Source of the DNA: Natronolimnobius sp. AArcel1
GTDB lineage: Archaea > Halobacteriota > Halobacteria > Halobacteriales > Natrialbaceae
NCBI RefSeq assembly: GCF_011043775.1
Contig: NZ_JAAKXY010000002.1
Span: 620,001-684,000, forward strand
Direction of reading: 5' to 3'
Length of the DNA stretch: 64,000 nucleotides
Shown piece by piece: positions 167-48,276 of the stretch; positions within the stretch are counted from its first letter, which is position 1; each line of letters begins with the position of its first letter. Under the pieces are notes generated by a model. That model had not been told where the DNA came from and ran no database searches. It saw only the letters and a list, made by a program, of their open reading frames with translations. Position numbers and translations under genes: made by a program.

Positions 167-1711
167 ATGACAGACCACACACCACACACGAACCACGACT
201 CGAACCGACCAGCACCCGACCAGCCTCGAGCGAGCCGTCGCGGCGTTATGAAAGCGATCGGTGCCGGTGCTGCAGCCGCAACTCTCGGCATCGCCGGCAT
301 CTCGCCGGCCGCAGCGACGCCCGACGTCTCCTTACCGACCGACGAGTTCGTCGAAACCGACGGCACCGAGTTCGTCATCGATGGCGAACCCGTCTACTTC
401 AACGGCGCGAACAACTTCTGGATCACCGACGACGACGCGAACGCGGCGACCGAGGAGCGCGTCGACGCCGTCTTCGACCTCTTCGATGAGTTGGGAATCA
501 ACCTCGTGCGCATCTGGGCCCACGGCGAGGCCAAGGAGGGCGAACTCGTCCTCCAGCCGGAACCCGGCGTCTACAACGAGGCGGCTCTCGAGCACCACGA
601 TTACGTGATCGAGGCCGCCCGCGAGCGCGGGATGAAACTCATCGTCGCCTTAGTCGACAACTGGGACCACGAAGGCGGCATGCTCCAGTACGCCGAGTGG
701 GCCGACGCGGAGTCGCGCTACGAGTTCTACACGATGGACGAGACTCGAGAGATGTACCGCAACCACGTCGAGACCATCCTCACGCGGGAGAATTCCTACA
801 GCGGCCTCGAGTGGCGCGACGATCCCACAATTGCGATGTGGGAACTCGCGAACGAGCCCCGACTCGAGCAGGACGACGTCCCCAACGATATGGACGATCT
901 CGAGCCGCCGGAACATCAGGAGATTCTCGGCGAGTGGATTCAGGAGATGTCGGCCTATATCAAAGACCTCGACGACAACCACCTCGTCTCGACGGGGTCG
1001 GAAGGCCACTACTACGGCCACTGGGAGGACGACTACCCGGACGACGACTGGGACGGCCAGGACTACCTCGAGCACCACTCCTACGACACGATTGACGCCG
1101 CCTCGTTCCACCTGTACCCCGACCACTGGGGCGACAACCCGGCAGATCCGGACGACCGGCTCTCCCTGCACGACGGCGCGGACTACATTACCGAGCGCGT
1201 CGAGGACGCACACAACGAACTGGGCATCCCGGCGTATCTCGGCGAGTTCAACGTCAATCTCTACGACCACGACCTCGAGACGCGCAATGAGTTCTTAGAG
1301 GAGTGGTACGACGCCGCCGATGCGGTCGACTGTAACGCCGTTATCCCGTGGCAGGTCGTCCTTGAGGACACGCAAGATCACGACGGCTTCCAGCTCTATG
1401 CGAGCGATTCGGGCTCCATCATCGAAGACTACGCCGAGGTCGTCGCTGAGAAAAGCGGTGACTGGGACGGTGACAACGGGAACGGCGACGAGGAAACAAT
1501 CGCCGTCGGCGAGTACAACACGACGGATACGACCAGCGATGGCCTGCACAACGATTTCACCGGTGATGGTGAGACGACCCACGACGACGTGACCGCCTTC
1601 TTTGAGAATCTCGAGGACGACGGCGTCCAGGACAATCCTGAGGCGTTCGACTTTGCCGAGAACGACGAACTCGGCTTTACGGACGTGGTTGAACTGCTCC
1701 GGCAGGTGTAG
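167..1711 (+). CDS. Secreted GH5 endo-beta-mannanase with C-terminal dockerin
   Basis: This 514-residue enzyme should hydrolyse internal beta-1,4-mannosidic bonds outside the cell. Residues 1-50 hold a Tat signal (SRRGVMK at 23-29, then an Ala/Gly-rich core). Residues 60-430 are a GH5 TIM barrel resembling fungal and plant type mannanases: FNGANNFW follows the first strand, the acid/base is E230 in MWELANEPR and the nucleophile is E360 in YLGEFNV. After a Gly/Asp linker, residues 459-514 form a dockerin-like module. Its loops are D463-D474 (DFTGDGETTHDD) and D495-D506 (DFAENDELGFTD). The same 56-residue ending is on six enzymes at 34.6-48.2 kb, so this is a distant member of that system. GH5 assignment is firm; mannan as substrate is inferred from overall resemblance. 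Confidence 0.88.
   Translation: MTDHTPHTNHDSNRPAPDQPRASRRGVMKAIGAGAAAATLGIAGISPAAATPDVSLPTDEFVETDGTEFVIDGEPVYFNGANNFWITDDDANAATEERVDAVFDLFDELGINLVRIWAHGEAKEGELVLQPEPGVYNEAALEHHDYVIEAARERGMKLIVALVDNWDHEGGMLQYAEWADAESRYEFYTMDETREMYRNHVETILTRENSYSGLEWRDDPTIAMWELANEPRLEQDDVPNDMDDLEPPEHQEILGEWIQEMSAYIKDLDDNHLVSTGSEGHYYGHWEDDYPDDDWDGQDYLEHHSYDTIDAASFHLYPDHWGDNPADPDDRLSLHDGADYITERVEDAHNELGIPAYLGEFNVNLYDHDLETRNEFLEEWYDAADAVDCNAVIPWQVVLEDTQDHDGFQLYASDSGSIIEDYAEVVAEKSGDWDGDNGNGDEETIAVGEYNTTDTTSDGLHNDFTGDGETTHDDVTAFFENLEDDGVQDNPEAFDFAENDELGFTDVVELLRQV
1541..1708 (+). repeat. Dockerin module copy 1 (mannanase)
   Basis: This segment codes for the 56-residue C-terminal module shared by seven enzymes in the window. 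It starts at GLHNDFTGDG and ends one codon before the stop. It lies about 33 kb from the other six copies. Confidence 0.85.
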
Positions 1712-34587: not shown

Positions 34588-36171
34588 TTAGACCTGCCTG
34601 AGGAGGGCAACGACATCCGCAAAGCCGACCTCGTCGTTTTCGGCGAAGTCGAACGCCTCAGGGTTGTTCTGGACTCCCTCATCCTCGAGATGCTCGAAAA
34701 AGACCGTCACGTCGTCGTGAGTTGTCTGGCCGTCGCCAGTGAGGTCGGTATACGCCCCATCACCGTTCGGATCGGTCGGTTGGGTTCCGCCGATCTCGGG
34801 CGGCCTTGAACCACCTTCTCCCGGCGGTGCCTCGCCGAGTTCAACGGCCCGTGTGTGCTGGACGAGCCAGTCCGTCACGTCGCCATCCGGAACCTCGAGG
34901 TCACGCGTCGTCGACTCGAGCTCAGGATAGCCGCCAACGTCGTCCTGGCTATCGATGATCGTGCCGGTTCGATTCTCGACATCAGCGAGGATCCGCTCAT
35001 CGGTGTCGGTCTTGTCTGCGGGGCGAGCGCCGGCGTGCGAGCGGACCTGATCGTACGGATCGTCGTCGATCGGCGTGAAGTTCTCGGGCCAGTACTCCTC
35101 GATCGGCTCGGATTCAATCTCCCACGGGGCGTCGGGTTCGACCAGTGTATACCCATCGTCGGAGACGTTGTTCGACGTGTGGAGGTAGATCGTCGGATCG
35201 TTCTCGTCGTGGTTGGTGTAGATGAGCGGTCGGTCCGTGTCCGCGTCGGGTCCGGTCCGATAGTGGTTGCCAACGACGTTGACGAAGGTGGGTTCGTCTA
35301 CGTCGTCGCCGATCCGCATCCCACGTTCGAAATTGTACCAGACGTTGTTCGCGACGGTGGCCTCTGTGCCGCCCTTGAGACGCGGGTTGCGACTCCACGT
35401 GTGGGCATAGAGATTGCCCAGAATTGCCGTTCGGTCAGCCCCGTTCCCGACGAGGCTGCCGTAGGCGCGCTGGTTATCGCTGCCGTGGGCCGGCGAGTCG
35501 AACAGCCCTTCCGCGATAAGGTTGTTACTGAACGTGATGTCTTCGGAGTGTTCGCTTGCATTGACCGACATCGACTCCTCACTGCCCCAACTCACAGAAC
35601 AGTGGTCAAAACAGACGTTGAAGCCATTATCGCCGACGACCATCGAATCCGACGGCCCGTCAATCTCGTCGCCCGGCCGCGAACGGATGTGTTGGACGAA
35701 CTGATTTTCCTCGTCGAACTCGAGGCCGGGTGAATCCGCTCGGATGAGCGTGATTCCGGGCGACGGCGCGGTCTGTCCAGCGACGTAGATGTTCGTTCGC
35801 TCGGCTTGTATATCCGTATTCTCGAGATCAATGACGCCGCCGACCTCGAAGACGATGAGTCGCCGACCGACATCTTCGGCGTCTAACTCGTCGTAGCCCA
35901 CTTCGCAGGCCCACTTGAACGACCCCTCGCCTGCCGCATCGAGGTTCGTTACCCGGACCACGACGAGTGGCCCCTCCTCGAGCCAGGACAGATCGGCGAA
36001 GCCGTCGTCGGGTGCAATCGGCGAACTCGGTGACTCTGTCCCAATGTTGTCAATCGTGACGACCTTACGATTGTCTCTCGTCTCCTGAGCGGTGATCGTC
36101 TGCGTGTTTTCAAGTGTCGCTGCGCCAAGGCCCGCTGCTCCCACAGTATGCAAGAAGCTTCTTCGATCCAT
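34588..36171 (-). CDS. Secreted PL1-like pectate lyase with C-terminal dockerin
   Basis: The 527-residue protein should cleave polygalacturonate by beta-elimination outside the cell. Residues 2-20 form a Tat signal (DRRSFLHTVG). The right-handed beta-helix domain spans about 35-440, with the PL1-type FDHCSVSWGSEE at 188-199 and RNPRLKGG at 261-268, where the Arg and Lys act in catalysis. A Pro/Gly linker leads to the 56-residue dockerin module (472-527), with loops DLTGDGQTTHDD and DFAENDEVGFAD. The ATG at 36171 is chosen because the Tat motif begins there. The upstream gap (36172-36432) is AT-rich near the gene and otherwise blank. Confidence 0.87.
   Translation of the reverse strand: MDRRSFLHTVGAAGLGAATLENTQTITAQETRDNRKVVTIDNIGTESPSSPIAPDDGFADLSWLEEGPLVVVRVTNLDAAGEGSFKWACEVGYDELDAEDVGRRLIVFEVGGVIDLENTDIQAERTNIYVAGQTAPSPGITLIRADSPGLEFDEENQFVQHIRSRPGDEIDGPSDSMVVGDNGFNVCFDHCSVSWGSEESMSVNASEHSEDITFSNNLIAEGLFDSPAHGSDNQRAYGSLVGNGADRTAILGNLYAHTWSRNPRLKGGTEATVANNVWYNFERGMRIGDDVDEPTFVNVVGNHYRTGPDADTDRPLIYTNHDENDPTIYLHTSNNVSDDGYTLVEPDAPWEIESEPIEEYWPENFTPIDDDPYDQVRSHAGARPADKTDTDERILADVENRTGTIIDSQDDVGGYPELESTTRDLEVPDGDVTDWLVQHTRAVELGEAPPGEGGSRPPEIGGTQPTDPNGDGAYTDLTGDGQTTHDDVTVFFEHLEDEGVQNNPEAFDFAENDEVGFADVVALLRQV
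34591..34758 (-). repeat. Dockerin module copy 2 (pectate lyase)
   Basis: This is the 56-residue C-terminal module in its most divergent form at the first loop: DL replaces DF and Q replaces E. Positions 10-11 of the loop are still His-Asp as in all copies. Confidence 0.85.
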
Positions 36172-36432
36172 CGTATAAATGAATGGAGTATGGCAATGAA
36201 ATAAATCCACGTCCCCCGAGCCGACTGCCGGTTGGCGTAGCGCTACATGCCTCTAGCTCCGTTTCAGGAACGTGCTCTCTCGTTCTCTTACAAATACCGG
36301 TGTTCTTAGTACAGCCACCACTTTCCGCTCACAAACAACTAACGAGAGACTGGTTGCACTCGTGACTACTCGCCAATCTTCGAATCCGTACAAAAATTGT
36401 CCTTGAGGGTGGTGACGCCGAAACCGTGGCTG

Positions 36433-37617
36433 TTAGACCTGGCGAAGCAGGTCAACCACATCTGCAAAGCTGACTTCGTCATTGCCGGCGAAGTCGAACG
36501 CCTCTGGGTTATTCTGGACGCTTTCATCCTCGAGGTTCTCGAAGAAGGCGGTCACATCATCGTGGGTGGTCTCGCCATCACCAGTGAAATCGTTGTGGAG
36601 GCCGTCGTCGGTGCTATCCTGGGTTTCGTACTCGCCGACCTCGATTGATTCTGGTTCGGGATCCGAGCCGTCTCCAGCATCGCTGCCGCTCTCGTAGGTC
36701 GTCCCGTTGACCGTCACATCGAGCGTGTTGTAGGTCACATCGCCCTGGACGCCACCCCAGTACTCATTTCCGACTTCGATGCCGCTGACCCACAGGTCCT
36801 CGCTGAGGCCGTAGCGCTCGCTCATGAAGTCGATAATTTCGCTCAGGTCAACCTGTCCCGTCGTCAGGCCGCCACTGACGCGGAAGATATGAAACGCAGC
36901 ATCGGTCCCGCCGCCACCGCTGTAGACCGTCCAGTAGTCGATTTCGTTGCCGAACTGATCGGTCCAGACTCCGGGTTCGTCGACGCCACCGTGGCTGTGC
37001 TCGTCGCTCCACTCGAGGACGAGCATGATCTCATGGGTGTGCGTCTCGATCTGCTGGTCGGGCGGCTGTTCCATCAGCCACCACTCCTCGGCGAGGTTCC
37101 ACTCGCCGCCGGAGACGTTGAGATCGATGTCGACCTCGAGCGTCAGTTCGTCAATATCGCCACGCTGGACCGGGAACGAGCCGACGTCGCTGTCGTCGCC
37201 CCAGGGTTTGGTGCCGAGTAAGACCTGCGGGTAGTTCGGTTCGCCACCGTCGGGGCGGGTAGTCCACTCGTAGCCGTAGCTGCCGTCCTCGGCAAGCCAG
37301 CTACACATCTCGAAGCCGCTGTCTTCGACGCTTTCCCCCCAATCGTTGTTGATCAACAGGAAGTCTCCGTCACCGACGTCGATCTCGCCGAAGGACTCAC
37401 AGGTTTCCTCGAGTGGCTGTGCGCCGGCAACAGCGGTCCCGCCGAGTGCGAGTGCGCCCGCCGTTGCGCCCGTTGCCTGGACGAACCGCCGTCTCGAGAG
37501 TGCGCGGCTGGTTTCGCCGTCGTCGTGACTTGCCGCGGCGTCCGGGTCACGCTGTGGGTGGTCGGTCGTCTCGGTTCGGTCACCGTCTGTGTTGTCCGCG
37601 TGTGGATTCGAATTCAT
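36433..37617 (-). CDS. Secreted GH12 endo-beta-glucanase with C-terminal dockerin
   Basis: The 394-residue protein has a Tat signal (SRRRFVQATG at 41-50) and a GH12 beta-jelly-roll at about 70-308. Family marks are LLINNDWG at 87-94, the probable nucleophile E196 in THEIMLVLEW and the probable acid/base E285 in EVGNEYWGG. GH12 enzymes act on cellulose, mixed-linkage glucan or xyloglucan. Residues 339-394 are the dockerin module. Its start lies 35 bases after the stop of the GH5 gene upstream, so the two are probably one operon. Confidence 0.85.
   Translation of the reverse strand: MNSNPHADNTDGDRTETTDHPQRDPDAAASHDDGETSRALSRRRFVQATGATAGALALGGTAVAGAQPLEETCESFGEIDVGDGDFLLINNDWGESVEDSGFEMCSWLAEDGSYGYEWTTRPDGGEPNYPQVLLGTKPWGDDSDVGSFPVQRGDIDELTLEVDIDLNVSGGEWNLAEEWWLMEQPPDQQIETHTHEIMLVLEWSDEHSHGGVDEPGVWTDQFGNEIDYWTVYSGGGGTDAAFHIFRVSGGLTTGQVDLSEIIDFMSERYGLSEDLWVSGIEVGNEYWGGVQGDVTYNTLDVTVNGTTYESGSDAGDGSDPEPESIEVGEYETQDSTDDGLHNDFTGDGETTHDDVTAFFENLEDESVQNNPEAFDFAGNDEVSFADVVDLLRQV
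36436..36603 (-). repeat. Dockerin module copy 3 (GH12)
   Basis: This codes for the 56-residue C-terminal module, with loops DFTGDGETTHDD and DFAGNDEVSFAD. Confidence 0.85.
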
Positions 37618-37652: not shown

Positions 37653-39281
37653 TCAGACCCGTCGAAGCAGTTCGACCACGTCTGCAAAGCCAACATCCTC
37701 GTCGTCAGCGAAGTCGAACGCGTCCGGATTGTTCTGGATACCCTCATCCTCGAGATTTTCGAAGAATGCGGTCACGTCGTCGTGGGTCGTCTCACCGTCG
37801 CCGGTGAAGTCGTTGTGCAGGCCGTCGTCAGTCGTGTCCGCAGGTGTGTACTCGCCGACCTGAATCGGCTCTGGCTCCGGATCGGAGTCGCCACCATCGC
37901 CCGGAAGCCCATCGTTGCGATAGGCCTCGAGTTGTGCTTTGACGTACTCGCCGGCGAACTCGTCGCCGCCCAGCAAGTCCCACTCACAGGGCAGGTCCTC
38001 GCAGTGGACGGGAATCTCGTCTTCGTAGGGGTGGCCAATGGAGTCGGTATCGTCCGGCTGTGTCGGGTCTTCGTCGAGAAACGACCGCGTGAACATGACT
38101 GGGCGCCAGATCGGATCGGCACACCAGGCCGTCCAGTGAATCGCGTCGCTCGACTCGAGCCACTCGAAGAAGGGGTCGGCAAAGTCGCTCGTCTGGCCGT
38201 AGAGTTCGGTCGCGCCGGCGTGGGTTGCCTCCCAACCGAACTCGGTGACGAACACCGGCACCTCCTCGTAGACGCCGTCGGTGCCCATGCCGTCGATGCC
38301 GACCTCGTCCCAGGCTTCGTCCTGGCTGACGACGTGACCCGAGTAGATGTGGTAGGCGTAGGCGAGGTTGTCGCCCTCGAAGGGCTCGATGTAGTAGCCC
38401 TCCGGGTTCTGACTCCAACTTGGCGAGCCGACGATGACGATATTGTCGGCGTGCTCGCGGATCGTATCCACCCATGGCTGGGCTAACTCCTTCCACAGTC
38501 GCCAGTTGTCTCTGACCCACTGGCGGTCGACCTCGGCCCACATGCCGGGTTCGGTCGGCTCGTTGTAGACCTCATAAAGGACGTGGTCGTCGTCAGCGTA
38601 TCTCGGCGCGACGATTTCCCAGAACATGTCGACCTCTTCTTGCAGGTCCTCGTTGATCGTCTCGTCTTGACTGTCTCCCCACATGCCGTCCCAGCCGTCC
38701 TCGGCGTCGTTATCCGTCCAATGGCGGTGGAAATCGACGATGGCGTAGACGCCCAGGTCGCCTAACTGCTCGATAATCGGATCGTAATGCGTCTCGAGGT
38801 ACTCCTCGAGTTCGGCCTCGGTGAACGCGACTGGGTCGGGCGGGCCGCCGGTGTGGCCGGGTTCGTGCTCGCCGATATCGACTGGCTGGGCGGGCACGCG
38901 GATGACTCTGGGATACCAGCCCTGGCTCTCGTCCGTGAGGAGGTCCACGACGTGTTCGGCGGCTTTTCCGCGTGCCGGTGCTGTCACGTTCAGGCGCTTC
39001 GGATCAGCGATGTTGAGTCCGCGGAGCGTGACGGTGTTTCCCTGCGGATCTTTGATCAGGTTTCCCTCAACGTGGAGTCGTGGCGTTGGAATGCCACGGC
39101 CCGTCTCCGCTGCGGCCGACGTTGTTGCCCCTGTGGCGAACCCTGCCGCGAGCGCTCCCGTCACAGCCGTTGACTGCAAGAAGCGCCGGCGCGTTGTCTG
39201 TCGGTCATTAGTGACTCCGTTCTCGAGGCGAGTTGCTGACTGGTCGTCTGTCTGCCCGTCTGTCGATGATGCGTATTTCAT
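37653..39281 (-). CDS. Secreted GH5 cellulase with C-terminal dockerin
   Basis: The 542-residue protein has a Tat signal (TRRRFLQSTA at 30-39) and a GH5 barrel from about 65 to 455. The acid/base is E241 in YEVYNEPTEPG and the nucleophile is E347 in VFVTEFGW; the strand VDFHRHW at 182-188 is also typical. The dockerin module is 487-542. It is a close paralogue of the next GH5 upstream, sharing GWYPR, PAQPxDIGEH and a CEWxLLGG segment. A TATA-like AAATATATG at 39319-39327 is about 40 bases before the ATG. Endoglucanase activity is the best guess. Confidence 0.87.
   Translation of the reverse strand: MKYASSTDGQTDDQSATRLENGVTNDRQTTRRRFLQSTAVTGALAAGFATGATTSAAAETGRGIPTPRLHVEGNLIKDPQGNTVTLRGLNIADPKRLNVTAPARGKAAEHVVDLLTDESQGWYPRVIRVPAQPVDIGEHEPGHTGGPPDPVAFTEAELEEYLETHYDPIIEQLGDLGVYAIVDFHRHWTDNDAEDGWDGMWGDSQDETINEDLQEEVDMFWEIVAPRYADDDHVLYEVYNEPTEPGMWAEVDRQWVRDNWRLWKELAQPWVDTIREHADNIVIVGSPSWSQNPEGYYIEPFEGDNLAYAYHIYSGHVVSQDEAWDEVGIDGMGTDGVYEEVPVFVTEFGWEATHAGATELYGQTSDFADPFFEWLESSDAIHWTAWCADPIWRPVMFTRSFLDEDPTQPDDTDSIGHPYEDEIPVHCEDLPCEWDLLGGDEFAGEYVKAQLEAYRNDGLPGDGGDSDPEPEPIQVGEYTPADTTDDGLHNDFTGDGETTHDDVTAFFENLEDEGIQNNPDAFDFADDEDVGFADVVELLRRV
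37656..37823 (-). repeat. Dockerin module copy 4 (GH5)
   Basis: This codes for the 56-residue C-terminal module. By eye it shares about 65 consecutive identical bases with copy 5 (near 37774-37838 and 39509-39573), much more similar than the barrels of the two enzymes. Confidence 0.85.
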
Positions 39282-39387
39282 ACCCTCTTACTACTCGTTC
39301 TGTGTGCTGACAGATTTCAAATATATGTGAAAATGTGTGTCAGCAGCGTGTGGTTGGAATGCGATACTGAGTCGCTGTGACCGCGGC

Positions 39388-41547
39388 TTACAGCTGACGC
39401 AGCAGTTCAGCGACGTCCGAGAAGGTAACGTCACCGCTGTCGGTGAAGTCGAACGCCTCGGGGTTGTCCTGGACGCCATCGTCTTCGAAGTTCTCGAAGA
39501 AGGCGGTCACGTCGTCGTGGGTCGTCTCACCGTCGCCGGTGAAGTCGTTGTGCAGGCCGTCGTCAGTCGTATCTTGGGCCGTGTACTCGCCGACCTGAAT
39601 ACCCTCCGAGGGCTCGCCGTTGTAGAGGTCCGGATCGTCGTAACCGGGGTCGGTCGTCCCCAGATCGAACGGCACCAGATCGTCGCGGTGAACCTCGAGT
39701 TGCTCTTTGATGTACTCGCCGCTGTCTTCGCCGCCGAGCAGTTCCCACTCGCAAGGCTGGTCTTCGACATCGGGACATGGTGCGCCGTCTGGCAGCGCTG
39801 CCCAGATGTCCTCGAGGTCGGTGTCGTAGAAGTTGTCGTTGACGAGAACCTCGTCAACGAGGTCGCCTTCGTCGGGCCCTTCTGGGAACTCGAACATCGT
39901 TGGGTACCAGCGAACGTCGGCACACCAGGCGATCCAGCTGATGCGGTCGTCGTCTTCGATCTGGTCGAAGAACGGAATGCCGTACTCTGGTAGCGTCCCC
40001 TGGCCAGTGGTCGTCCCGCGCAGCCAGTGGGCAACTTCTGGATCGTCGATCCAGCCGAACTCACTGATCGAGATGTGATGGAAGTCCATCGCATCCTGCA
40101 AGCCGGCGGCTTCGTAGCCTTCCCAGCCGTAACACGAGTCTTCGTAGACATCCTGATCCGGCTCGATGTATGGATCAGTCAACTCACCGTCTGTCTCTGC
40201 AGCGATGTCTTCGTGCCAGCTGTAGTTCGTATCGTTGAACCAGTTGTTGAGTTGGCTCACGTCGTGGCCGGCGTAGTTGTGCCAGGTGACGGCGATATTG
40301 TCGTAGCCGGCGTCGTTGAAGTCGTACCAGTACAGTCCCTGCAGCGACTGACACCAGCCGGGGACGCCGACCAGCAGCACCTGTTCGGGCTGGTGCTGTC
40401 GAATCTCGTCGATGATCGGCCCCATGAAGTCGTCGACGAACGTCTCCCACAGCGGCTCCTGTTTGAGCGCGCCACAGCCCTCAACTGGCCCCCAGATACC
40501 TGGCGCCGTTGGCTCGTTGTACGGCTCAAAGACCACGTGTGGCTCGTCGGCGTACCGGTCGGCGACGACGCTCCAGAACAGCAACGCCTCCTCGAGCAGT
40601 TCTTCGTTGACCTGCCAGTTGTCGTACTCGTACGGCGTGCCAGGGATGTCAGCATCGGTTTCGATGCCAGCCCAGTCTTCATCCGGATTGTCTCGGTACT
40701 GGTGGTCGCCTTCGTTGATGTACGTCGAGTCGACGTGACCCCACGATGCCGGCGTTGTCTCGTCGAAGGAGACGTACTGGTCCTCGTACGTGTTGTACGC
40801 CCAGTAGTTCGTGTACGGACTGTCGTATGGCAGGTGATTCTCTGCCGCGCCGGGGTCTTCCGTTCCCGGCGGCTGTTCGTGCCAGTGACGGTGGAAGTCG
40901 ACGATGGCGTAGACGCCGCGTTCCTTACAGCGCTCGACGAGTGGGTCGTAGTAGTTCTCGAGATAATCCTCGAGTTCGGATTCGGTGAACGCGACGGGCT
41001 GTGGCGGCTGCATCGCCCGTCGATTGTCACGAATTGCGTCCGGATTCTCGATATCTGGAGCCTCCGGGCGTAGGTTGCCATCGTCGTCGAAGTACTCCGG
41101 ACCGGCGTGGCCCATCGGGTGTTCGCCAATGTCCTGTGGCTGGGCAGGCAGGCGGATAGCGCGTGGATACCAGCCACGGTCGTTGTTGGTCATCATGTCG
41201 AGCAACTGTAGCGGGGTTTTCCCTCGCAGTTGGCTCGTCCGGTCGAGTCGCTTCGGATCAGGGATGCTGACCCCCCGCATCTTGAACGGTTCGCCCGACT
41301 CGTTGACGATTCGGTTCTGGCTATCAATCGTCAGGTCCTCAAACTCGCTGATGTTGCCCGCAACGCTGCCAGTAATGCCTGCGCCCAGCCCGATTGCGGC
41401 CGCGCTTGCACCGGCTGTTGCTCGCATCATCGACCGGCGCGACATCCTGATCGTCGGCTGTTCGCTCGCGCGGTCTAATGCCCGTCGTTTTGTGCTCTGA
41501 TTCGTCGATTCGCCCGTCTGCCGTCTGCTATTGTTGTTGTTGCTCAT
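39388..41547 (-). CDS. Secreted long GH5 cellulase with C-terminal dockerin
   Basis: The 719-residue protein is the largest enzyme of the cluster. A Tat signal (SRRSMMRATAG at 36-46) sits unusually far from the start; an ATG at residue 35 could be the real start. The GH5 barrel spans about 70-625, with acid/base E345 in FEPYNEPTAPG and nucleophile E496 in ISEFGW. Compared with its paralogue at 37653-39281 it has insertions near 225-310 and 440-520, with Cys pairs that could form disulphides. The dockerin module is 664-719. The upstream 150 bases are very AT-rich. Confidence 0.87.
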   Translation of the reverse strand: MSNNNNSRRQTGESTNQSTKRRALDRASEQPTIRMSRRSMMRATAGASAAAIGLGAGITGSVAGNISEFEDLTIDSQNRIVNESGEPFKMRGVSIPDPKRLDRTSQLRGKTPLQLLDMMTNNDRGWYPRAIRLPAQPQDIGEHPMGHAGPEYFDDDGNLRPEAPDIENPDAIRDNRRAMQPPQPVAFTESELEDYLENYYDPLVERCKERGVYAIVDFHRHWHEQPPGTEDPGAAENHLPYDSPYTNYWAYNTYEDQYVSFDETTPASWGHVDSTYINEGDHQYRDNPDEDWAGIETDADIPGTPYEYDNWQVNEELLEEALLFWSVVADRYADEPHVVFEPYNEPTAPGIWGPVEGCGALKQEPLWETFVDDFMGPIIDEIRQHQPEQVLLVGVPGWCQSLQGLYWYDFNDAGYDNIAVTWHNYAGHDVSQLNNWFNDTNYSWHEDIAAETDGELTDPYIEPDQDVYEDSCYGWEGYEAAGLQDAMDFHHISISEFGWIDDPEVAHWLRGTTTGQGTLPEYGIPFFDQIEDDDRISWIAWCADVRWYPTMFEFPEGPDEGDLVDEVLVNDNFYDTDLEDIWAALPDGAPCPDVEDQPCEWELLGGEDSGEYIKEQLEVHRDDLVPFDLGTTDPGYDDPDLYNGEPSEGIQVGEYTAQDTTDDGLHNDFTGDGETTHDDVTAFFENFEDDGVQDNPEAFDFTDSGDVTFSDVAELLRQL
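39391..39558 (-). repeat. Dockerin module copy 5 (long GH5)
   Basis: This codes for the 56-residue C-terminal module; the second loop is DFTDSGDVTFSD, the most divergent second loop of the seven. Confidence 0.85.
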
Positions 41548-41697: not shown

Positions 41698-43434
41698 CTA
41701 GACGTCGTGAAGCAGGTCGACGACGTCCGCGAAGCCGATTTCGTCGTTGCCGGCAAAATCGAAGTCTTCCGCGTTCTGCTGGACCGCATCGTCCTCGAGG
41801 TTCTCGAAGAAGGCGGTCACGTCGTCGTGGGTGGTCTGGCCGTCACCGGTGAAGTCGTTCCGGAGGCCATCACCAGTCGTATCCTCGGGCGTGTAGTCGC
41901 CGACGACTGGGTCATCGTCGCCCTCTCCGTCGCCATCGACTGTAATTTCCAACTGGACAGGGGAAGTGGCGTCAGTGACTGAGACCTCTTGGGTCGCCGA
42001 TTCGCCGTTGACGGTGACCGTAACCTCGTGGTCGCCGTGGAACACTGCGGTCTCGAACTCGCCGCTGGCGTCGGTCGTCCCCGACTCGTCGGTCCACCAC
42101 TCATCGAAGACGAGGTCGACGTACTCGTCGTAGGCCGGCTTTTCGGTCCAGTCCTCCTCGTACAGCGGTGCGTCCGGATCGTCGCCCATTTCCGGGCCCC
42201 AGTGGACCGGGTCCCAGTGCCCCCACATGAGGAAGTCCTCGGCTTCGGGGTGACTGAAGAACGTCTTGAGGAACTGGTGGAGGTACTCGGCCTGCATCTG
42301 TCGATCCCAGCCGTCACCGAACATGTCGAATTCGGTGACCTTGAGGCCGGCGCCGTACTCGGCGTACTCGTCGAGCCGGGTCATCATCGTGTCGGGATCG
42401 ATGCGCTCGTGCTCATAGTGGTGAGACTGCATCCCGATGCCGTCGAGATCAATCCCACGCTCGTTCATCAAATAGTCGATCTGGTCATGGTACTGGTCGC
42501 GGGCGTAGCCGTGGTCGCCGTTGAGCGTATTATAGTCGTTGACCGCAATGTCGATGTCGTACCGGTCGGCGACCTCTTCACCGAACTCGTACCAGTCGCC
42601 CAGGATTTCTGCGGTCTCCGGCGTAACGTTGTCGCCCTCGACGGCCTCGATCATCGCCGGCTCGTGGAAGACCTCGTTGACGATCTCCCACTCCGTGATG
42701 TCGTCGCCGTAGTGTTCGATGATCGTCTCGATGTGATCCATTGACTCGGAGACGACGTAGTCGGGGTCGTGATCCGGCTCACCGGCTTCCTCCCAGTCTT
42801 CGCCCATCGCCTCGACGACCCGCGGCGGAATCGCGTGCGCGTCGATATTCCCCCACAGTGCGACGTGACCGCGCACGTCCATGTCTCGCTCACGCGCCCA
42901 CTCGACCGCGTCGTCGGCAATCTCGGTGTCGTCCTCCCAGATGTTCCACTTGTGGAGATTCTCGAGGACGATCATGTTGAAGTGCTCCTCGAGGGTTTCG
43001 GCGTAGCGCTCCTGATCTTCGTCGGTGTAGATATCCTCGCCCCACTCACTGCCCCGCGTGAGGAACTCGGCGTGGGCCATACACCCAAAGCCGAACTCGT
43101 GTTCCTGCTGTTCGATTTCGACCGTTGCGTCCGTGACAGACGAACCGTCCTCAGTCTCGACGACGACCTCGAGGTCACCCATTCGGTACTGTTCGATACG
43201 CTCGTCCGCGTCGGCTTCCCAGGATTCCTGTGCACCGACGGTTCCAGTGCTGCCCGCCGTAACGCCGAGGCCGGAAAGCCCGCCGACCAGTCCTGCAATG
43301 CCTATGCTCCGCAGATAGTCACGACGCTCGAGTGCGGCTGTGACGTCACGTTCTGCATTGTCTGTTACTGGCTGGTCGCCATCGGTTCGGTCCGCTTGCT
43401 CCGATCTCGTCGTATCGGTCTTGTCGTATGTCAT
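41698..43434 (-). CDS. Secreted GH10 endo-beta-1,4-xylanase with C-terminal dockerin
   Basis: The 578-residue protein has a Tat-like signal (ERRDYLRSIG at 36-45), then a small beta domain (80-115) often seen before GH10 barrels. The GH10 barrel spans about 115-445, with acid/base E254 in WEIVNEVFHEP and nucleophile E368 in LKVTEFDMFG. Residues 450-500 form a further beta domain (GEFETAVFHGDHEVTVTV). The dockerin module at 523-578 has GLRNDF instead of GLHNDF. It has no recognisable CBM of its own. Confidence 0.9.
   Translation of the reverse strand: MTYDKTDTTRSEQADRTDGDQPVTDNAERDVTAALERRDYLRSIGIAGLVGGLSGLGVTAGSTGTVGAQESWEADADERIEQYRMGDLEVVVETEDGSSVTDATVEIEQQEHEFGFGCMAHAEFLTRGSEWGEDIYTDEDQERYAETLEEHFNMIVLENLHKWNIWEDDTEIADDAVEWARERDMDVRGHVALWGNIDAHAIPPRVVEAMGEDWEEAGEPDHDPDYVVSESMDHIETIIEHYGDDITEWEIVNEVFHEPAMIEAVEGDNVTPETAEILGDWYEFGEEVADRYDIDIAVNDYNTLNGDHGYARDQYHDQIDYLMNERGIDLDGIGMQSHHYEHERIDPDTMMTRLDEYAEYGAGLKVTEFDMFGDGWDRQMQAEYLHQFLKTFFSHPEAEDFLMWGHWDPVHWGPEMGDDPDAPLYEEDWTEKPAYDEYVDLVFDEWWTDESGTTDASGEFETAVFHGDHEVTVTVNGESATQEVSVTDATSPVQLEITVDGDGEGDDDPVVGDYTPEDTTGDGLRNDFTGDGQTTHDDVTAFFENLEDDAVQQNAEDFDFAGNDEIGFADVVDLLHDV
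41701..41868 (-). repeat. Dockerin module copy 6 (GH10)
   Basis: This codes for the 56-residue C-terminal module; it ends in VVDLLHDV and has DFAGNDEIGFAD as second loop. Confidence 0.85.
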
Positions 43435-43693: not shown

Positions 43694-46063
43694 TTAGGAG
43701 ACGGTGATCTCGACTTCGTCAGTGGACTGACGATCGAGTTGGTCCGTCGCCGTCAGTGTCACCGTATAGGTTCCACTCGAGTCGTACGTGTGGTCGTTCC
43801 ACCAGCCGCTGGCGGTCGTGCCGTCGCCGAAGTCCCACTCGAGTGAGGCAATCCAGGCGTCGTTCGGTGACGTGTCGGTGACGCTGAATTCGAGTCGATC
43901 GCCAGCCGAGACGGATGTACTCGAGGGCTCCAGTTCGGCCAGATCGTCCTCGAGTGGAATCTCGCCGTCGAGTGGTTCCCAGGCACCGTTGATGTCGTAC
44001 TCGGGCTCTTGGCCTTGGTTCGTCCACTTGGCCTCCCAGTCTTCGCCCTCCCAGGAGACGCGCTCGCCTTCCTCGTAAAGGACGTCGGACTCCCATTCGG
44101 AGTAATCGCCCGGTTCGCCTGGGTCAGGGTCGTCCTCGTCGGTCGTCGCCGTCACCGTTGCGGTGTCGGTCTCGTCGCCATCGTCGTCAACGGCGCTGAC
44201 GCCGACTTCATACTCGGTGTCGTCATCGAGACCCGTCACCGTCGCACTCGAGGTCGTGGTATCGCTGTCGAGCGTGCCATCAACGTAGACGTTGAAGCTG
44301 GCTGCGTTTGCGTCGGCGCTCCAAGAGACCTCGATGGAACTCTCGGTTGTTTCGGCGACATCGAGGTCTTCGGGGACGACTGGCGACTCATCGACTGGTT
44401 CACCGTCGACGGACAGGGTTGCGGATTCGACGTCTGCGTCGATATCTTCGTCATCCAGATCCTCGATGCGGACGATTTCGACGTCGAGATCGGTCTCGCC
44501 GCCGGCTTCGCCCTCGAGTTCGACGTAGCCGAAGTCGATGTCGGTCGTGCCGGGGTCGAGCGGTTCAATAGCGCTGAGACGGACGGTGTCGCCATCGATA
44601 TCGACGTAGCTGATCGGTTCAGAGGTGTCTGGGAACGGCTCGCTGATGTCTGCGTCTGCAATCGAGGCGACGCTATCGTCGACGGTGAGATCGACCGTAA
44701 AGCCGAGCAGGCCGTCGGGTGCCTCCGAGAGGCCGAGGTCGACGGTCGTCGTGTCGCCAGTGTCGATCTCGTCGTCAGCTGGATCGACCGTGATCGTTGG
44801 CGTTTCCGGTGGCTCTTCACCGTCGACGGACAGCGTTGCAGACTCGACGTCTGCCTCAATATCTTCGTCATCCAGATCCTCGATGCGGACGATTTCGACA
44901 TCGATGTCGGTCTCGCCAGCGTCTTCGCCCTCGAGTTCGACGTGACCGAAGTCGATGTCGGTCGTACCGGGGTCGAGCGGTTCGATGGCACTGAGACGGA
45001 CAGTGTCGCCATCGATATCGACGTAGCTGATTGGTTCGGAGGTGTCTGGGAAGGTGTCGCTGATGTCAGCGTCAGCGATCGAAACGACGCTGTCATCGAT
45101 GGTGAGGTCAACGGTAAAGCCGAGCAGGCCGTCGGGTGCCTCCGAGAGGCCGAGGTCGACAGTCGTCGTCTCGCCAGATTCAATCTCGTTGTCTGCCAGA
45201 TCGACGGTTACCGTCGTCGTTTCCGGCGGCTCGTCGTCTTCTTCGTCCGTCGTTGCTGTCACCGTCTCAGTGTCAGTCTCGTCGCCGTCGTCGCCGACTG
45301 CGCTCACACCGATTTCGTACTCGGTGTCGGCCTCGAGACCGCTTAACGTTGCGCCGGCGGAACTGGTTTCGTCCTCGAGACTGCCGTCGAGATAGACGTT
45401 GTAGCTGGCCGCGTTCGCGTCGGCGCTCCAGTCGACTTCGATGGAACTCTCGCTCGTCGAGACGACCTCGAGGTCTGTTGGCGTACTTGGTGGCGACGGC
45501 TCGTCGTCGGGTTCGCCAACGGTCAGCGTCGGAGCGTCGTAATTGGCTTCTCGGATGACGTCGCTGTCCGGGTCGGTGAGTGCGAACTCGTCGAGTTCGA
45601 GGGTCGTTTCGCCCTCTTCCTCCTGGGCTTCGATGTGATAGGTTCCGACTTCGACTTCGGATTCCTCGATGTCAGCGATCCGTGGAAGCAAGATCGAGTC
45701 GACGCCGCCGCCTGCTTCCTCGATTTCGTCGTTCAGCTCGATTTCGAGCAACGAGTTATTGATGTCGACTTCAGTAATCAGTGCAACATCGGGATCGACC
45801 TCGAGCGTGACGTTGACGCCGGCCGAGCCGACTGGGGCATCCTCGAGCGAAACCGTTGCCGTTGTCGTTTCACCGGGGTCGACTTGTTCGTCAGCCAGTT
45901 CGGTGACGATGGTTGGAACGTCCTGTGCGGATGCCGCTGAGGCACCGAGTGTGAGCGCGCCTGCGCTCGCGCCGGCAGCTTTGATGAAGGTGCGGCGTGA
46001 GGTCGGTGTGCGATCTTCTGCGTCCTTTTCGTCTGTCGCGTGGGTTGTCGTGTCGTCGTTCAT
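43694..46063 (-). CDS. Scaffoldin-like secreted protein: three cohesin-like, two Fn3, CBM5/12 and PKD modules
   Basis: The 789-residue protein has a Tat signal (SRRTFIKAAG at 22-31). Cohesin-like domains lie at about 49-183, 283-414 and 421-553. Each begins with the pattern V(D/E)PGETTTxxVxL, continues with a DLTxDDS strand and ends with a VESATLSVDG type strand. Fn3 domains lie at 194-273 and 562-642. A CBM5/12-like module (652-699: VLYEEGERVSWEGEDWEAKW, then GQEPE and W695) should bind cellulose or chitin. A PKD domain (708-789, EWDFGDG) ends the chain. There is no dockerin or membrane anchor. Lying among six dockerin-bearing enzymes, it is the obvious assembly platform. The start at 46063 is set by the Tat motif; ATGs at 46099 and 46147 are in frame. 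That the modules are functional cohesins is inference from family resemblance and context. Confidence 0.85.
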   Translation of the reverse strand: MNDDTTTHATDEKDAEDRTPTSRRTFIKAAGASAGALTLGASAASAQDVPTIVTELADEQVDPGETTTATVSLEDAPVGSAGVNVTLEVDPDVALITEVDINNSLLEIELNDEIEEAGGGVDSILLPRIADIEESEVEVGTYHIEAQEEEGETTLELDEFALTDPDSDVIREANYDAPTLTVGEPDDEPSPPSTPTDLEVVSTSESSIEVDWSADANAASYNVYLDGSLEDETSSAGATLSGLEADTEYEIGVSAVGDDGDETDTETVTATTDEEDDEPPETTTVTVDLADNEIESGETTTVDLGLSEAPDGLLGFTVDLTIDDSVVSIADADISDTFPDTSEPISYVDIDGDTVRLSAIEPLDPGTTDIDFGHVELEGEDAGETDIDVEIVRIEDLDDEDIEADVESATLSVDGEEPPETPTITVDPADDEIDTGDTTTVDLGLSEAPDGLLGFTVDLTVDDSVASIADADISEPFPDTSEPISYVDIDGDTVRLSAIEPLDPGTTDIDFGYVELEGEAGGETDLDVEIVRIEDLDDEDIDADVESATLSVDGEPVDESPVVPEDLDVAETTESSIEVSWSADANAASFNVYVDGTLDSDTTTSSATVTGLDDDTEYEVGVSAVDDDGDETDTATVTATTDEDDPDPGEPGDYSEWESDVLYEEGERVSWEGEDWEAKWTNQGQEPEYDINGAWEPLDGEIPLEDDLAELEPSSTSVSAGDRLEFSVTDTSPNDAWIASLEWDFGDGTTASGWWNDHTYDSSGTYTVTLTATDQLDRQSTDEVEITVS
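44405..45217 (-). repeat. Tandem near-identical cohesin-like modules 2 and 3
   Basis: Two units of about 400 bases (44822-45217 and 44405-44803) encode almost the same 132 residues, including an identical run around DGLLGFTVDL and VRLSAIEPLDPGTTDID. The differences are few, indicating recent duplication or gene conversion. Module 1 is clearly diverged. Confidence 0.9.
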
Positions 46064-46199
46064 TGTGGGTGTCTCCTCGCTTGCTGTCTCCGATTCCATG
46101 CTGGTGCTCGCTCTCTCGCTCGTGCCCGCCAGCGATGGAAGGGACACATATTACAGCTCTATTCCGACAGATAATAAGATTTTTTATCGGCTGAATAAA

Positions 46200-46280: not shown

Positions 46281-48161
46281 TTAGATTTCGTTGAGCAGTT
46301 CCACGACGTCTGCAAAGCTGACCTCGCCGTCGCCGGCGAAGTCGAACGCATCAGGGTTGCCCTGTACGTTTTCGTCCTCGAGGTTCTCGAAGAAGGCGGT
46401 CACGTCGTCGTGGGTGGTGTCGCCATCGCCGGTGAAGTCGTTGTGCAGGCCGTCGTCGGTGGTGTCTTCTGCGTTGTAGTCGCCGACCTGGATGCCGTCG
46501 TCATCGGCGTCAATCGGACCCGGGCCGATGTGCAGTGAGTTCTTCTCGTTGTCAGCATCTGGATACGGCTCGTCACCGGGGGCGAACTCGTCGCGGTCGC
46601 CAGCCATTTCCTGGTTCCACTCGTGCCACCAGGCACCGGGTGTGTCCTCGTTCAGGTAGTCCATCCAGTCATCAGCATCGGGTGCGCCGGATTCGCCATC
46701 TGGGCCAGGGTCGCCGTGTTCGAACATGTGCGGCTCCCAGCTGTGGTCGAAACACCACGCCAGTGGGTGGACATCGTACTCGAGCAGGAACTCCTCATAG
46801 CCCTCGATAAACGGCTCACAGTCGGCGTCTTCGGGATCCTGGTCGGGATCGGTCGTACAGTCCATCCACGGCGTATCGACTTCCTTGCCACCGCCTTCGA
46901 TCCAGCCGAACTCACTGAAGAAGATCGGTACGTGCTCGGATGGCTCGCCGATGTAGTCGCCGAGTGGCCGCATGTCTTCTTGCGTGTAGACGTGGGCCGT
47001 GTAACACATGTTCTCGGCGTCGAACTCGTTGTACGGTGCCCAGTAGGCGTACTGGCTCCAGCGTGGGCTGCCGATCGTGATGAGGTGGCCGGGTGCGTTC
47101 TCCTCGACCGTATCGACCCACGGCTGGGCACGGTCACGCCAGAGGTCGTACCAGCCTTTCATCTCGTCGAGTCGAACGTCGTAGTCGCCTTCGGCCTCGC
47201 CCGGTGCTTGCTCTGGGAAGGAAAGTTCACCTGCCTGACGCTCTGGGCCGCCCCAGTCGCCGCCGTACGGGCCGGTTGGCTCGTTGTAGACGTCGAAAAT
47301 GACGTGGTCGTCGCCTGCATACCGGTCGGCGATGACCTCCCAGAACGTGTGCAGTTCGTCGTCGAGCGCGTTCGAAATTTCAGCCGGCTCGAGGTAGATA
47401 TCGTCTTCGTCGAGGTCGAACGCTTCAACGATGTTTTGGTCGTCGATAAGACTCCAGATGTCGTCGACCTGGTCCTCGCCGTGCCAGAGAACGCCGCGTT
47501 CGCCACAGACTTCCGAATTGCGCCAGCTTTCGCCGCCATCGGAGTCACACTGCCAGATGTCGTACGGAATATCGTGGTTTGCGTGGTCTTCCTGGTGGAA
47601 AACCGGATAGTGGCGGTGGTAGTCAATCATCACGTAAGCGCCGCGCTCGGCACCCATGTCGACGAGTTCGTCGAGATACGTCTGGCAGTACCACTCGACG
47701 TCGCTCGCATCGAACGAGCCGGGGAGCAGCGGTCCCCAGTCGTCGCCGTGTGGCATCTGTCCCGGTTCTGGTGCCTGCGTACCGGCGGAGATGAACTCAG
47801 CTTGAACCGGGATGCGGACGATGTTCGTGTACCAGCCTTCGCTCTCGTCAGTCGCCAACTCGAACGTTTCGGGTGCGGTCTGTCCGCGCCAGTCACGACT
47901 CTGCTCGCCCGGGTCGGCGATGTTGACGCCACGGAGAATTACCTCGTTCCCGCTCGGGTCGACGATTTTGTTTCCGTCGCGTGCAAGCGGCGGCAGATCG
48001 GCTGCCTGCCCCGCTGCACTGCCGGCGACCGCCCCAAGGCCACCAACTGCGAGGACGCTTGCGCCAGTTGCCTTCATAATAGACCGCCGTGACGTCGAGA
48101 TTCCTCGACGCCCGCCAGTTGCCTGTGCTGCTCGGTCAGATGGATTCGTGTTCTCGGTCAT
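46281..48161 (-). CDS. Secreted GH5 cellulase with C-terminal dockerin
   Basis: The 626-residue protein is the most upstream gene of the cluster in the direction of transcription. The Tat signal is SRRSIMKATG at 24-33. The GH5 barrel runs from about 60 to 525, with acid/base E294 in FDVYNEPTGPYG and nucleophile E417 in IFFSEFGW; DYHRHY at 180-185 is typical. Cys residues at 205, 219, 434 and 448 may form disulphides. The dockerin module is 571-626, with the most canonical second loop, DFAGDGEVSFAD. The start is the ATG at 48161; the frame is open to 48236 without signal-peptide character. Confidence 0.87.
   Translation of the reverse strand: MTENTNPSDRAAQATGGRRGISTSRRSIMKATGASVLAVGGLGAVAGSAAGQAADLPPLARDGNKIVDPSGNEVILRGVNIADPGEQSRDWRGQTAPETFELATDESEGWYTNIVRIPVQAEFISAGTQAPEPGQMPHGDDWGPLLPGSFDASDVEWYCQTYLDELVDMGAERGAYVMIDYHRHYPVFHQEDHANHDIPYDIWQCDSDGGESWRNSEVCGERGVLWHGEDQVDDIWSLIDDQNIVEAFDLDEDDIYLEPAEISNALDDELHTFWEVIADRYAGDDHVIFDVYNEPTGPYGGDWGGPERQAGELSFPEQAPGEAEGDYDVRLDEMKGWYDLWRDRAQPWVDTVEENAPGHLITIGSPRWSQYAYWAPYNEFDAENMCYTAHVYTQEDMRPLGDYIGEPSEHVPIFFSEFGWIEGGGKEVDTPWMDCTTDPDQDPEDADCEPFIEGYEEFLLEYDVHPLAWCFDHSWEPHMFEHGDPGPDGESGAPDADDWMDYLNEDTPGAWWHEWNQEMAGDRDEFAPGDEPYPDADNEKNSLHIGPGPIDADDDGIQVGDYNAEDTTDDGLHNDFTGDGDTTHDDVTAFFENLEDENVQGNPDAFDFAGDGEVSFADVVELLNEI
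46284..46451 (-). repeat. Dockerin module copy 7 (GH5)
   Basis: This codes for the 56-residue C-terminal module, where both loops keep a D-x-x-G-D-G start. Confidence 0.85.
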
Positions 48162-48276
48162 GGTCAGTTGATCGCATCCCGCTGCGAACGCCTCGAGCCG
48201 CGGAACGCAAAGGGCCGTCAACGACCCTCTCGACATACTTACTCGAGATACGATATGAAATTTACTTCTAGAAGAC

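What the first reader, a model, noticed from the sequence alone, without database searches (positions are those of the whole stretch)
37656..39573. Dockerin DNA of two neighbouring GH5 genes is nearly identical
About 65 consecutive bases appear identical between 37774-37838 and 39509-39573, while the catalytic barrels differ clearly. This indicates recent gene conversion or module transfer that keeps the dockerins uniform.
Basis: seen in the sequence. Interest (0 to 1): 0.5.

Follow-up and report, generated by a model that had tools for sequence, protein, structure and literature searches.

The report
Enzyme docking tags copying each other
In what looks like a salt-loving archaeon with many predicted plant-sugar enzymes, two neighbouring enzyme genes share a short identical stretch in their docking tags, and relatives show that such tags are copied between genes, which may keep all the enzymes fitting one scaffold protein.

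Summary
In detail: 64 of 65 bases match at the stated coordinates, and the true exact run is 68 bases (37768-37835 = 39503-39570). It is the longest exact run among all 325 module pairs from the two genomes of this genus and is beyond chance under three nulls. Only the first EF-hand is shared, best read as a short gene-conversion tract; its date is uncertain, after the species split being moderately favoured. Across nine related genomes, however, dockerins do evolve in concert: in a four-family set all 36 modules are nearer to a module of another enzyme family in the same genome than to their own family in another genus, silent sites agree, and one locus shows a crossover inside dockerin DNA. 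Predicted folds support dockerin and cohesin; a triple-cohesin scaffoldin-like gene (43694-46147) lies among the enzymes. Known parts, known process; I found no report of dockerins evolving this way.

The parts
37653..39281 (-). g6: GH5 enzyme with C-terminal dockerin; weak TAT signal match
   Evidence: Pfam Cellulase 7.5e-30, TAT_signal 0.02; ortholog in G001 with barrel 92% identical
37656..37853 (-). dockerin module of g6
   Evidence: dockerin fold by AF2 + VIA-align
37768..37835 (-). 68-nt tract identical to 39503-39570 (first EF-hand of the dockerin)
39388..41547 (-). g7: GH5 enzyme with C-terminal dockerin
   Evidence: Pfam Cellulase 3.5e-16
39391..39588 (-). dockerin module of g7
39503..39570 (-). 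68-nt tract identical to 37768-37835
34588..36210 (-). g4: protein with dockerin (module 34591-34779); only a weak TAT match in Pfam, no catalytic match ('PL' in my script labels is only a guess)
36433..37617 (-). g5: protein with dockerin (module 36436-36633); no Pfam match ('GH11?' in my script labels is only a guess)
41698..43434 (-). g8: GH10 enzyme with dockerin (module about 41701-41898)
   Evidence: Pfam Glyco_hydro_10 1.4e-38
46281..48236 (-). g9: GH5 enzyme with dockerin (module about 46284-46481)
   Evidence: Pfam Cellulase 2.8e-18, Dockerin_1 0.014
167..1711 (+). g1: GH5 enzyme with dockerin (module 1511-1708)
   Evidence: Pfam Cellulase 1.2e-13
43694..46147 (-). scaffoldin-like protein: TAT signal match, three cohesins, two fn3, CBM5/12 match below Pfam cut-off, PKD
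   Evidence: Pfam; cohesin fold
45518..45916 (-). cohesin 1 (weak match to cohesin 2, E 2.2e-8)
44819..45223 (-). cohesin 2 (the one folded)
   Evidence: AF2 pLDDT 89.1; Foldseek 6kgd_A E 9.8e-9; VIA-align Z 16.6
44402..44806 (-). cohesin 3 (88% identical to cohesin 2)

Best explanation
The dockerin modules at the C-termini of the predicted secreted glycoside hydrolases form a dispersed repeat family (13 strong copies in this genome, 7 in the window) whose DNA recombines between genes, by short gene-conversion tracts and at least once by crossover between neighbours. The 68-nt tract shared by g6 and g7 is one short conversion tract over the first calcium loop. It is somewhat more likely to date from after the split from G001 than before; its direction is unresolved. 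Over longer times such events make the dockerins of a lineage resemble one another while the catalytic barrels keep their own histories. Inferred, not shown: this keeps every enzyme's plug matched to the cohesins of one scaffoldin-like protein (43694-46147), so that a change in the docking code can spread through the enzyme set.
For: (1) 68-nt run not chance; tract pS 0.00 against barrel pS 0.55. (2) Tract differences between g6 and g7: 0 in G000, where the next-lowest of 78 pairs has 6; 7 in G001. G001-private changes in the tract are 6 against 1.4 expected if the tract had been identical at the split (P 0.003); with the rate of the rest of the module 3.1 expected, P 0.09. (3) Silent-site concordance (only codons giving the same residue in all four copies) exceeds its mirror control in 16 of 16 genome pairs examined (of 36 possible), e.g. 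G022-G096 49:5, G000-G022 35:6, G096-G098 26:8, G000-G098 23:0, G081-G098 18:3, but only 71:67 for G000-G001; barrel background ratio 0.89-1.53. (4) 36 modules (4 enzyme families x 9 genomes): all 36 are nearer to a module of another family in the same genome than to their own family in another genus; 35 of 36 when 'another clade' is used. On the module tree the genus label changes 2 times (the minimum; shuffled mean 11.0) and the family label 18 (shuffled mean 20.6); on the barrel tree 8 and 3. (5) 114 reciprocal-best barrel pairs between genera: barrels 64% identical, modules 58%; in-genome modules on barrels without a BLAST hit 65-82%. (6) G099's gene joins the barrel of G098_052 to the dockerin and 3' flank of the neighbouring G098_077, with about 2.9 kb absent. 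(7) Residue 11 of the first loop is nearly uniform within clades: D 26/26, E 6/7, E 19/19, G 12/13, A 12/16. (8) Dockerin and cohesin folds.
Against: Within the genus the signal is weak: all-module concordance 117:93, P 0.065-0.073; silent 71:67, P 0.39, about the barrel background of 1.03. Module and barrel ortholog divergence do not differ over 13 genes. In G001, too, g6-g7 is the second-lowest of 78 pairs in the tract (7 differences; medians 15.5, or 11 among nine core genes), so part of the likeness may be older than the split. No site of the g6/g7 module has the diagnostic in-genome pattern. G098-G099 alone is not significant (P 0.25). Quartet counts share genes and are not independent; exact label-swap P values for most pairs sit at their floor of 0.03-0.125 because only 4-6 orthologs exist. 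Conversion tracts between genome copies in Haloferax are described as kilobases long (PMC8223754, passages), this one is about 68-80 nt. No cohesin-dockerin binding was tested.
Confidence: 0.65

Rival explanations
1. No DNA transfer: all dockerins of a genome must fit the same cohesins, so selection on the protein plus shared codon preference makes them alike, and the 68-nt identity is constraint.
For: Many invariant columns of the module lie in the tract and some of its codons never vary (His CAC 154 of 154 comparisons); the genus-level excess includes first and second codon positions (23:10, P 0.04).
Against: With fixed proteins and the codon usage of the catalytic parts, 68 nt arose in 0 of 1500 simulations and 22 identical codons have probability 1.4e-7; column-specific same-codon frequencies give 4.8e-6. 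Silent-site concordance across genera far exceeds the barrel background in most comparisons. The G099 junction is a physical recombination product.
Confidence: 0.1
2. The tract was already identical in the common ancestor of G000 and G001 (older conversion or module duplication) and by chance gained no change in G000.
For: No site in the tract has the pattern G000 copies alike and G001 copies alike but different. Several G001 differences look private to one G001 copy. In G001 the tract of g6 and g7 is also among the most alike (second of 78), and g7 of G000 is nearer in the tract to g6 of G001 (3 codons differ) than to its own ortholog (5). Expected silent changes 3.9, P(0) 0.02, not negligible after choosing the longest of 78 pairs.
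Against: Six G001-private changes against 1.4-3.1 expected (P 0.003-0.09); one shared ACT codon found in neither G001 copy.
Confidence: 0.3
3. Whole dockerins are swapped by crossover, deletion and fusion of neighbouring genes (module shuffling), not converted.
For: The G098/G099 fusion is exactly that.
Against: In g6/g7 only part of the module is shared and both genes keep their own downstream half and order. It may still explain part of the cross-genus pattern.
Confidence: 0.25
4. Barrels, not dockerins, move: catalytic domains are exchanged between species by homologous recombination while each genome keeps its resident dockerins.
For: Recombination between haloarchaeal species is reported (PMC4500145, abstract start in search listing). 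A few cross-clade barrel pairs are 91-93% identical (G089 with G096).
Against: In the four families used for the trees, cross-clade barrels are 60-89% identical (124 pairs), no sign of recent transfer there.
Confidence: 0.12

Closest known systems
Type I dockerins and cohesins of clostridial cellulosomes (e.g. 2vn5, 6kgd)
   Same: C-terminal module with two calcium-loop-like motifs on glycoside hydrolases; cohesin fold repeated in a scaffold-like protein.
   Different: Apparently haloarchaeal; the second loop is degenerate in this genus; Pfam Dockerin_1 and Cohesin match only part of the family, often weakly; binding untested.
Archaeoglobus fulgidus non-cellulosomal cohesin (2xdh)
   Same: Archaeal cohesin fold, VIA-align Z 15.6, 2.3 A over 126 residues.
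   Different: Here three cohesins sit in one protein beside a cluster of dockerin-bearing polysaccharide hydrolases.
Natronoglomus mannanivorans GH5/GH10 cluster (PMC10963439, passages read)
   Same: Haloarchaeal clusters of extracellular GH5 and GH10 enzymes with dockerin I annotations, and an 815-aa 'Dockerin/PKD family' protein with a TAT signal.
   Different: That paper describes dockerin as taking part in substrate binding and has no occurrence of cohesin in its main text; enzyme sizes differ; whether its 815-aa protein is a scaffoldin was not tested here.
Concerted evolution of prokaryotic gene families by gene conversion (tuf, rRNA; as described in PMC8223754, passages)
   Same: Paralogs within a genome more alike than expected from gene history; patches rather than whole genes.
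   Different: Here only a 66-residue domain, embedded in genes whose other parts are mostly unrelated, is homogenised, and the tract seen is short.

Membership tests
Dockerin (type I) | module at the C-terminus of secreted enzymes | tested here: met
   26 of 26 modules in G000 and G001 end 0-1 residue before the stop; several carry TAT matches, mostly below cut-off
Dockerin (type I) | two intact calcium loops | tested here: inconclusive
   first loop D-x-T-G-D-G conserved; second loop lacks the usual acidic residue at position 3 in this genus (read; loop rule recalled)
Dockerin (type I) | match to the curated Pfam model | tested here: inconclusive
   Dockerin_1 in 25 of 35 members at E <= 0.05, best 1.8e-8 (35 chosen from the 81 modules); window g9 16.0 bits against cut-off 22.9
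Dockerin (type I) | dockerin fold | tested here: met
   AF2 pLDDT 93.8; all 19 VIA-align rows (186 chains compared) are dockerins or dockerin complexes, best 2vn5_D Z 5.8, 2.2 A over 52 residues, a middling Z; Foldseek top two hits are dockerins but E is 0.55 and 0.69
Dockerin (type I) | binds a cohesin | not testable with these tools
   needs a binding assay
Cohesin | cohesin jelly-roll fold | tested here: met
   cohesin 2 only: Foldseek 6kgd_A E 9.8e-9, TM 0.81; VIA-align Z 16.6, 2.0 A over 131 residues
Cohesin | match to the curated Pfam model | tested here: inconclusive
   Cohesin in 6 of 33 members, best 4.2e-4; the window's cohesin 2 matches only Big_12 weakly
Cellulosome | scaffoldin with several cohesins plus many dockerin-bearing enzymes | tested here: met
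   one protein with three cohesin matches, 13 dockerin modules in the genome
Cellulosome | carbohydrate-binding module on the scaffoldin | tested here: inconclusive
   CBM_5_12 E 2.2e-4, 21.6 bits against cut-off 26.2
Cellulosome | assembled multi-enzyme complex | not testable with these tools
   needs biochemistry
Concerted evolution by gene conversion | in-genome copies more alike than orthologs, at silent sites too, relative to flanks (between genera) | tested here: met
Concerted evolution by gene conversion | same, for the g6-g7 pair over the whole module | tested here: not met
   orthologs closer (0.89, 0.94 vs 0.80); module pS equals barrel pS
Concerted evolution by gene conversion | tract of unusual identity bounded by diverged sequence | tested here: met
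   68-nt tract, 0 of 2000 permutations for the pair, 0 of 400 overall

The most novel reading that the evidence does not exclude
Haloarchaea of this family carry cellulosome-like systems in which recombination among dockerin DNAs is the device that keeps all enzymes of a species on one docking code and lets that code change wholesale between lineages, including residue 11 of the first loop (D, E, G or A by clade).
Probability: 0.35. Interest if true: 0.72.

Novelty: new variant of a known kind. Interest (0 to 1): 0.52.

Why it matters
If right, it explains how a docking tag scattered over a dozen mostly unrelated enzymes can stay matched to one scaffold while differing between species: recombination spreads one version. 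It makes species specificity of cohesin-dockerin pairs testable as an evolutionary process. It also points to a cohesin scaffold in haloarchaea; two papers on haloarchaeal polysaccharide degradation, seen in passages, do not use the word cohesin in their main text.

Tried and rejected
Whole-module homogenisation of g6/g7: rejected. Pure chance or codon bias: rejected. Inflated module divergence between orthologs as a general signature of conversion: not seen over 13 genes (Wilcoxon P 0.56 on the rounded values), though g1, g4 and g5 have module pS 0.58, 0.58 and 0.62 against barrel 0.36, 0.39 and 0.35. Two Fisher tests (P 0.0006 for missing G000-private changes in the tract; P 0.0001 for missing ortholog-diagnostic sites) were discarded as circular: the tract was chosen because g6 and g7 of G000 agree there. 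The five clades (A = G000, G001; B = G022; C = G081, G089, G102; D = G098, G099; E = G096) were drawn by me after seeing the modules, and C, D and E are one genus by the tool's codes; so I repeated the tree count with the tool's genus codes and with single genomes. Genus: module tree 2, barrel tree 8. Genome: module tree 17 (minimum 8; shuffled mean 26.7), barrel tree 32. With my clades the module tree needs 4 changes, the minimum, but clade C is not one branch in the drawing. A genome-contig scan with the module found one distant Pseudomonas locus. The PDB sequence search with the module profile is led by calmodulin-like proteins; dockerins appear at E 0.029. The cohesin profile's best PDB hit is Scaffoldin C at E 0.0065. 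Cohesins 2 and 3 as a second case of concerted evolution: nt identity in-genome 0.881 and 0.840, orthologs 0.837 and 0.854; site patterns 10 in-genome, 5 ortholog, 4 trans, but silent codons 2, 0, 3: inconclusive. My regular expression for the second loop failed on all modules, so no count is claimed for it. Rows dropped: a 14th weak match in this genome (E 0.04) was not used; 3 partial modules of 84 were left out, leaving 81; one search used 16 of 36 genome pairs and only ortholog pairs above a barrel identity of 55-80%. Searches for print: 'dockerin'+'gene conversion' (one irrelevant hit), 'dockerin'+'concerted evolution' (none), 'dockerin'+'cohesin'+'haloarchaea' (one review, passages), 'dockerin'+'Natronococcus' (none), and (listings); the library holds open-licence papers only.
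Full report
OBSERVATION. It encodes TTDDGLHNDFTGDGETTHDDVT plus part of the next codon, the first calcium loop of the C-terminal module. The genome gives 14 matches to the module at E <= 1, 13 of them strong, 7 of these in the window. The 68-mer has two exact copies in the genome.

IS IT CHANCE? I compared the last 228 nt of all 13 genes (g1-g13) and of their 13 counterparts in G001, the only other genome held for this genus. Of 325 pairs the g6-g7 run is the longest; the next three are 47, one of them an ortholog pair. Codon-usage simulation with fixed proteins reached 68 in 0 of 1500 runs, resampling columns in 0 of 800; permuting the 127 variable columns gave 0 of 2000 for the pair and 0 of 400 for all pairs.

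The module as a whole is not nearly identical. It is 80% identical between g6 and g7 but 89% and 94% to the orthologs. Silent divergence of the module is 0.50 (0.36-0.65), of the barrel 0.55 (0.50-0.62). Site patterns in the quartet are 22 ortholog-shared, 0 in-genome, 0 trans.

THE TRACT. It begins one base after a g6/g7 difference and ends at a codon where g6 carries what looks like a private change; the next g6/g7-diagnostic codon is a few codons on, so the tract is about 68-80 nt (upper bound inferred). In G000 it has 0 differences, the next-lowest of 78 pairs having 6. In G001 the g6-g7 tract has 7 differences, the second-lowest of 78 pairs there (median 15.5; 11 among nine core genes). 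So the two genes may have been alike here before the split, and the question is whether they were identical. If they were, G001 should have gained 1.4 private changes (pooled rate) or 3.1 (rate of the rest of the module); six are seen, P 0.003 or 0.09. Silent changes expected between g6 and g7 of G000 since the split are 3.9, none seen, P 0.02. This favours a conversion in this lineage after the split, moderately. Direction is unresolved: four sites single out the G001 g7 copy and two the G001 g6 copy.

WITHIN THE GENUS. A test without a tree counts sites where two genes agree within genomes but differ between genomes, against the mirror pattern, with labels swapped per gene as the null. First EF-hand 42:19 (P 0.014), the 68-nt region 30:12 (P 0.008), second half 65:71 (P 0.70), linker 11:14 (P 0.77), whole module 117:93 (P 0.07). 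Silent codons only: first EF-hand 31:14 (P 0.024), second half 37:51 (P 0.98), whole module 71:67 (P 0.39). So there is a modest, patchy signal confined to the first EF-hand. Eight of 26 first-EF-hand segments have a paralog as best partner, seven of them in the same genome (one, g6 of G000, tied with the ortholog); of the second halves six of 26, three in the same genome. Against a general effect, ortholog divergence of module and barrel does not differ.

ACROSS GENERA. From seven further genomes of the same family by the tool's codes (one of genus g22, six of genus g9) I collected modules; 81 full-length ones in nine genomes were used, 3 partial of 84 being dropped. In 114 reciprocal-best barrel pairs between genera the barrels are 64% identical and the modules 58%, whereas in one genome modules on barrels with no BLAST hit are 65-82% identical. 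In a set of 36 modules (four enzyme families in nine genomes) all 36 are nearer to a module of another family in the same genome than to their own family in another genus, and 35 of 36 when compared with another of my five clades. On the module tree the genus label changes 2 times (minimum 2, shuffled mean 11.0), the family label 18 (minimum 3, shuffled mean 20.6); on the barrel tree 8 and 3. The module tree has 66 columns and many weak forks. Silent codons alone give concordant:control of 49:5 (G022-G096), 35:6 (G000-G022), 29:7 (G000-G096), 26:8 (G096-G098), 26:7 (G096-G102), 23:0 (G000-G098), 19:3 (G022-G098), 18:3 (G081-G098), 17:10 (G022-G102), 15:10 (G000-G102), 12:2 (G096-G099), 26:11 (G081-G089), 20:9 (G089-G102), 10:3 (G081-G102), 7:3 (G098-G099), 71:67 (G000-G001); the barrel background is 0.89-1.53. 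Counts share genes and are not independent trials. Exact label-swap tests on all sites reach their floor in 8 of 10 genome pairs tried, the floor being 0.03-0.125; G098-G099 (P 0.25) and G000-G001 (P 0.065) do not.

A RECOMBINATION PRODUCT. G098 has two adjacent dockerin genes; G099 has one gene whose barrel matches the first (96%) and whose dockerin and downstream DNA match the second, with about 2.9 kb of G098 DNA absent (length by my arithmetic from the BLAST coordinates). The switch lies near the start of the module. The simplest reading is a deletion by crossover between the two dockerins in G099; an insertion in G098 is not excluded.

WHAT THE MODULES ARE. The module model (pLDDT 93.8) aligns in VIA-align only to dockerins or dockerin complexes (19 of 19 rows, best Z 5.8), though Foldseek gives them E 0.55 and 0.69. 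Cohesin 2 of 43694-46147 (pLDDT 89.1) has the cohesin fold (Foldseek E 9.8e-9, VIA-align Z 16.6; the Archaeoglobus cohesin 2xdh at Z 15.6). Sequence models alone are weak for both. The protein also has a TAT match, fn3, PKD and a sub-threshold CBM5/12. G000 and G001 each have one protein with three cohesin matches. By gene content this is cellulosome-like; assembly is inferred.

MECHANISM. Shown: recombination inside dockerin DNA, silent-site homogenisation within genomes between genera, a 68-nt tract of improbable identity. Inferred: gene conversion as the usual event; matching to one scaffold as the selective reason. Residue 11 of the first loop is D in 26 of 26 modules of clade A, E in 6 of 7 (B) and 19 of 19 (C), G in 12 of 13 (D), A in 12 of 16 (E); that this position takes part in cohesin recognition is recalled from clostridial work and comes from no call. 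Gene conversion is very active in Haloferax but reported tracts between genome copies are long (PMC8223754, passages); here homology ends at the module edge, which would limit tract length (inference).

LITERATURE. PMC10963439 (passages) describes similar haloarchaeal enzyme clusters and annotates dockerins, with no occurrence of cohesin; PMC10267330 (passages) on cellulose use by haloarchaea has no occurrence of dockerin or cohesin in its main text. No paper on dockerins evolving by conversion was found in the searches named under Tried and rejected.

CHANGES ON CHECKING.

Noticed in passing
43694-46147: Triple-cohesin, fn3, CBM5/12 (sub-threshold), PKD protein within the enzyme cluster: a scaffoldin candidate, with cohesin relatives at E 1e-23 or better in genomes of genera g9 and g22.
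   Followed up: yes
44399-44698 and 44816-45115: Cohesins 2 and 3 of the scaffoldin are 88% identical in this genome, slightly more than to their orthologs; concerted evolution of cohesins too is possible but silent sites are inconclusive.
   Followed up: partly
L132 1506-5778 and L134 2686-4017: Gene fusion in G099 by recombination between two neighbouring dockerin modules, about 2.9 kb absent.
   Followed up: yes
L131, L133: In 9 of 13 dockerins of G098 and G099 the first loop reads GDN instead of GDG (2 read GDE, 2 GDG), a change shared by most paralogs of that clade.
   Followed up: no
G016 and G027: 47 and 56 dockerin-like modules in one genome. G027's contig length (2,723,120) equals the genome size printed for HArcel1 in PMC10267330, named Halococcoides cellulosivorans HArcel1 in PMC10963439, so it is probably that strain.
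   Followed up: no
L025/L058 and similar loci (G009, G010, G012, G017, G023, G024): A second arrangement with one dockerin match and one or two weak cohesin matches side by side, in open frames of about 880-1160 aa, apart from the enzyme clusters.
   Followed up: no
61911-62663: Minus-strand 250-aa ORF with a long array of 12-nt-phased repeats; weak DUF445 match below cut-off.
   Followed up: no
29617-34563: 1648-aa sensor-regulator with many PAS domains, GAF, BAT and HTH_10 next to the enzyme cluster; by position a candidate regulator of it.
   Followed up: no
36433-37617 and 34588-36210: Two dockerin-bearing proteins without a catalytic Pfam match; possibly unrecognised polysaccharide-active families.
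   Followed up: no
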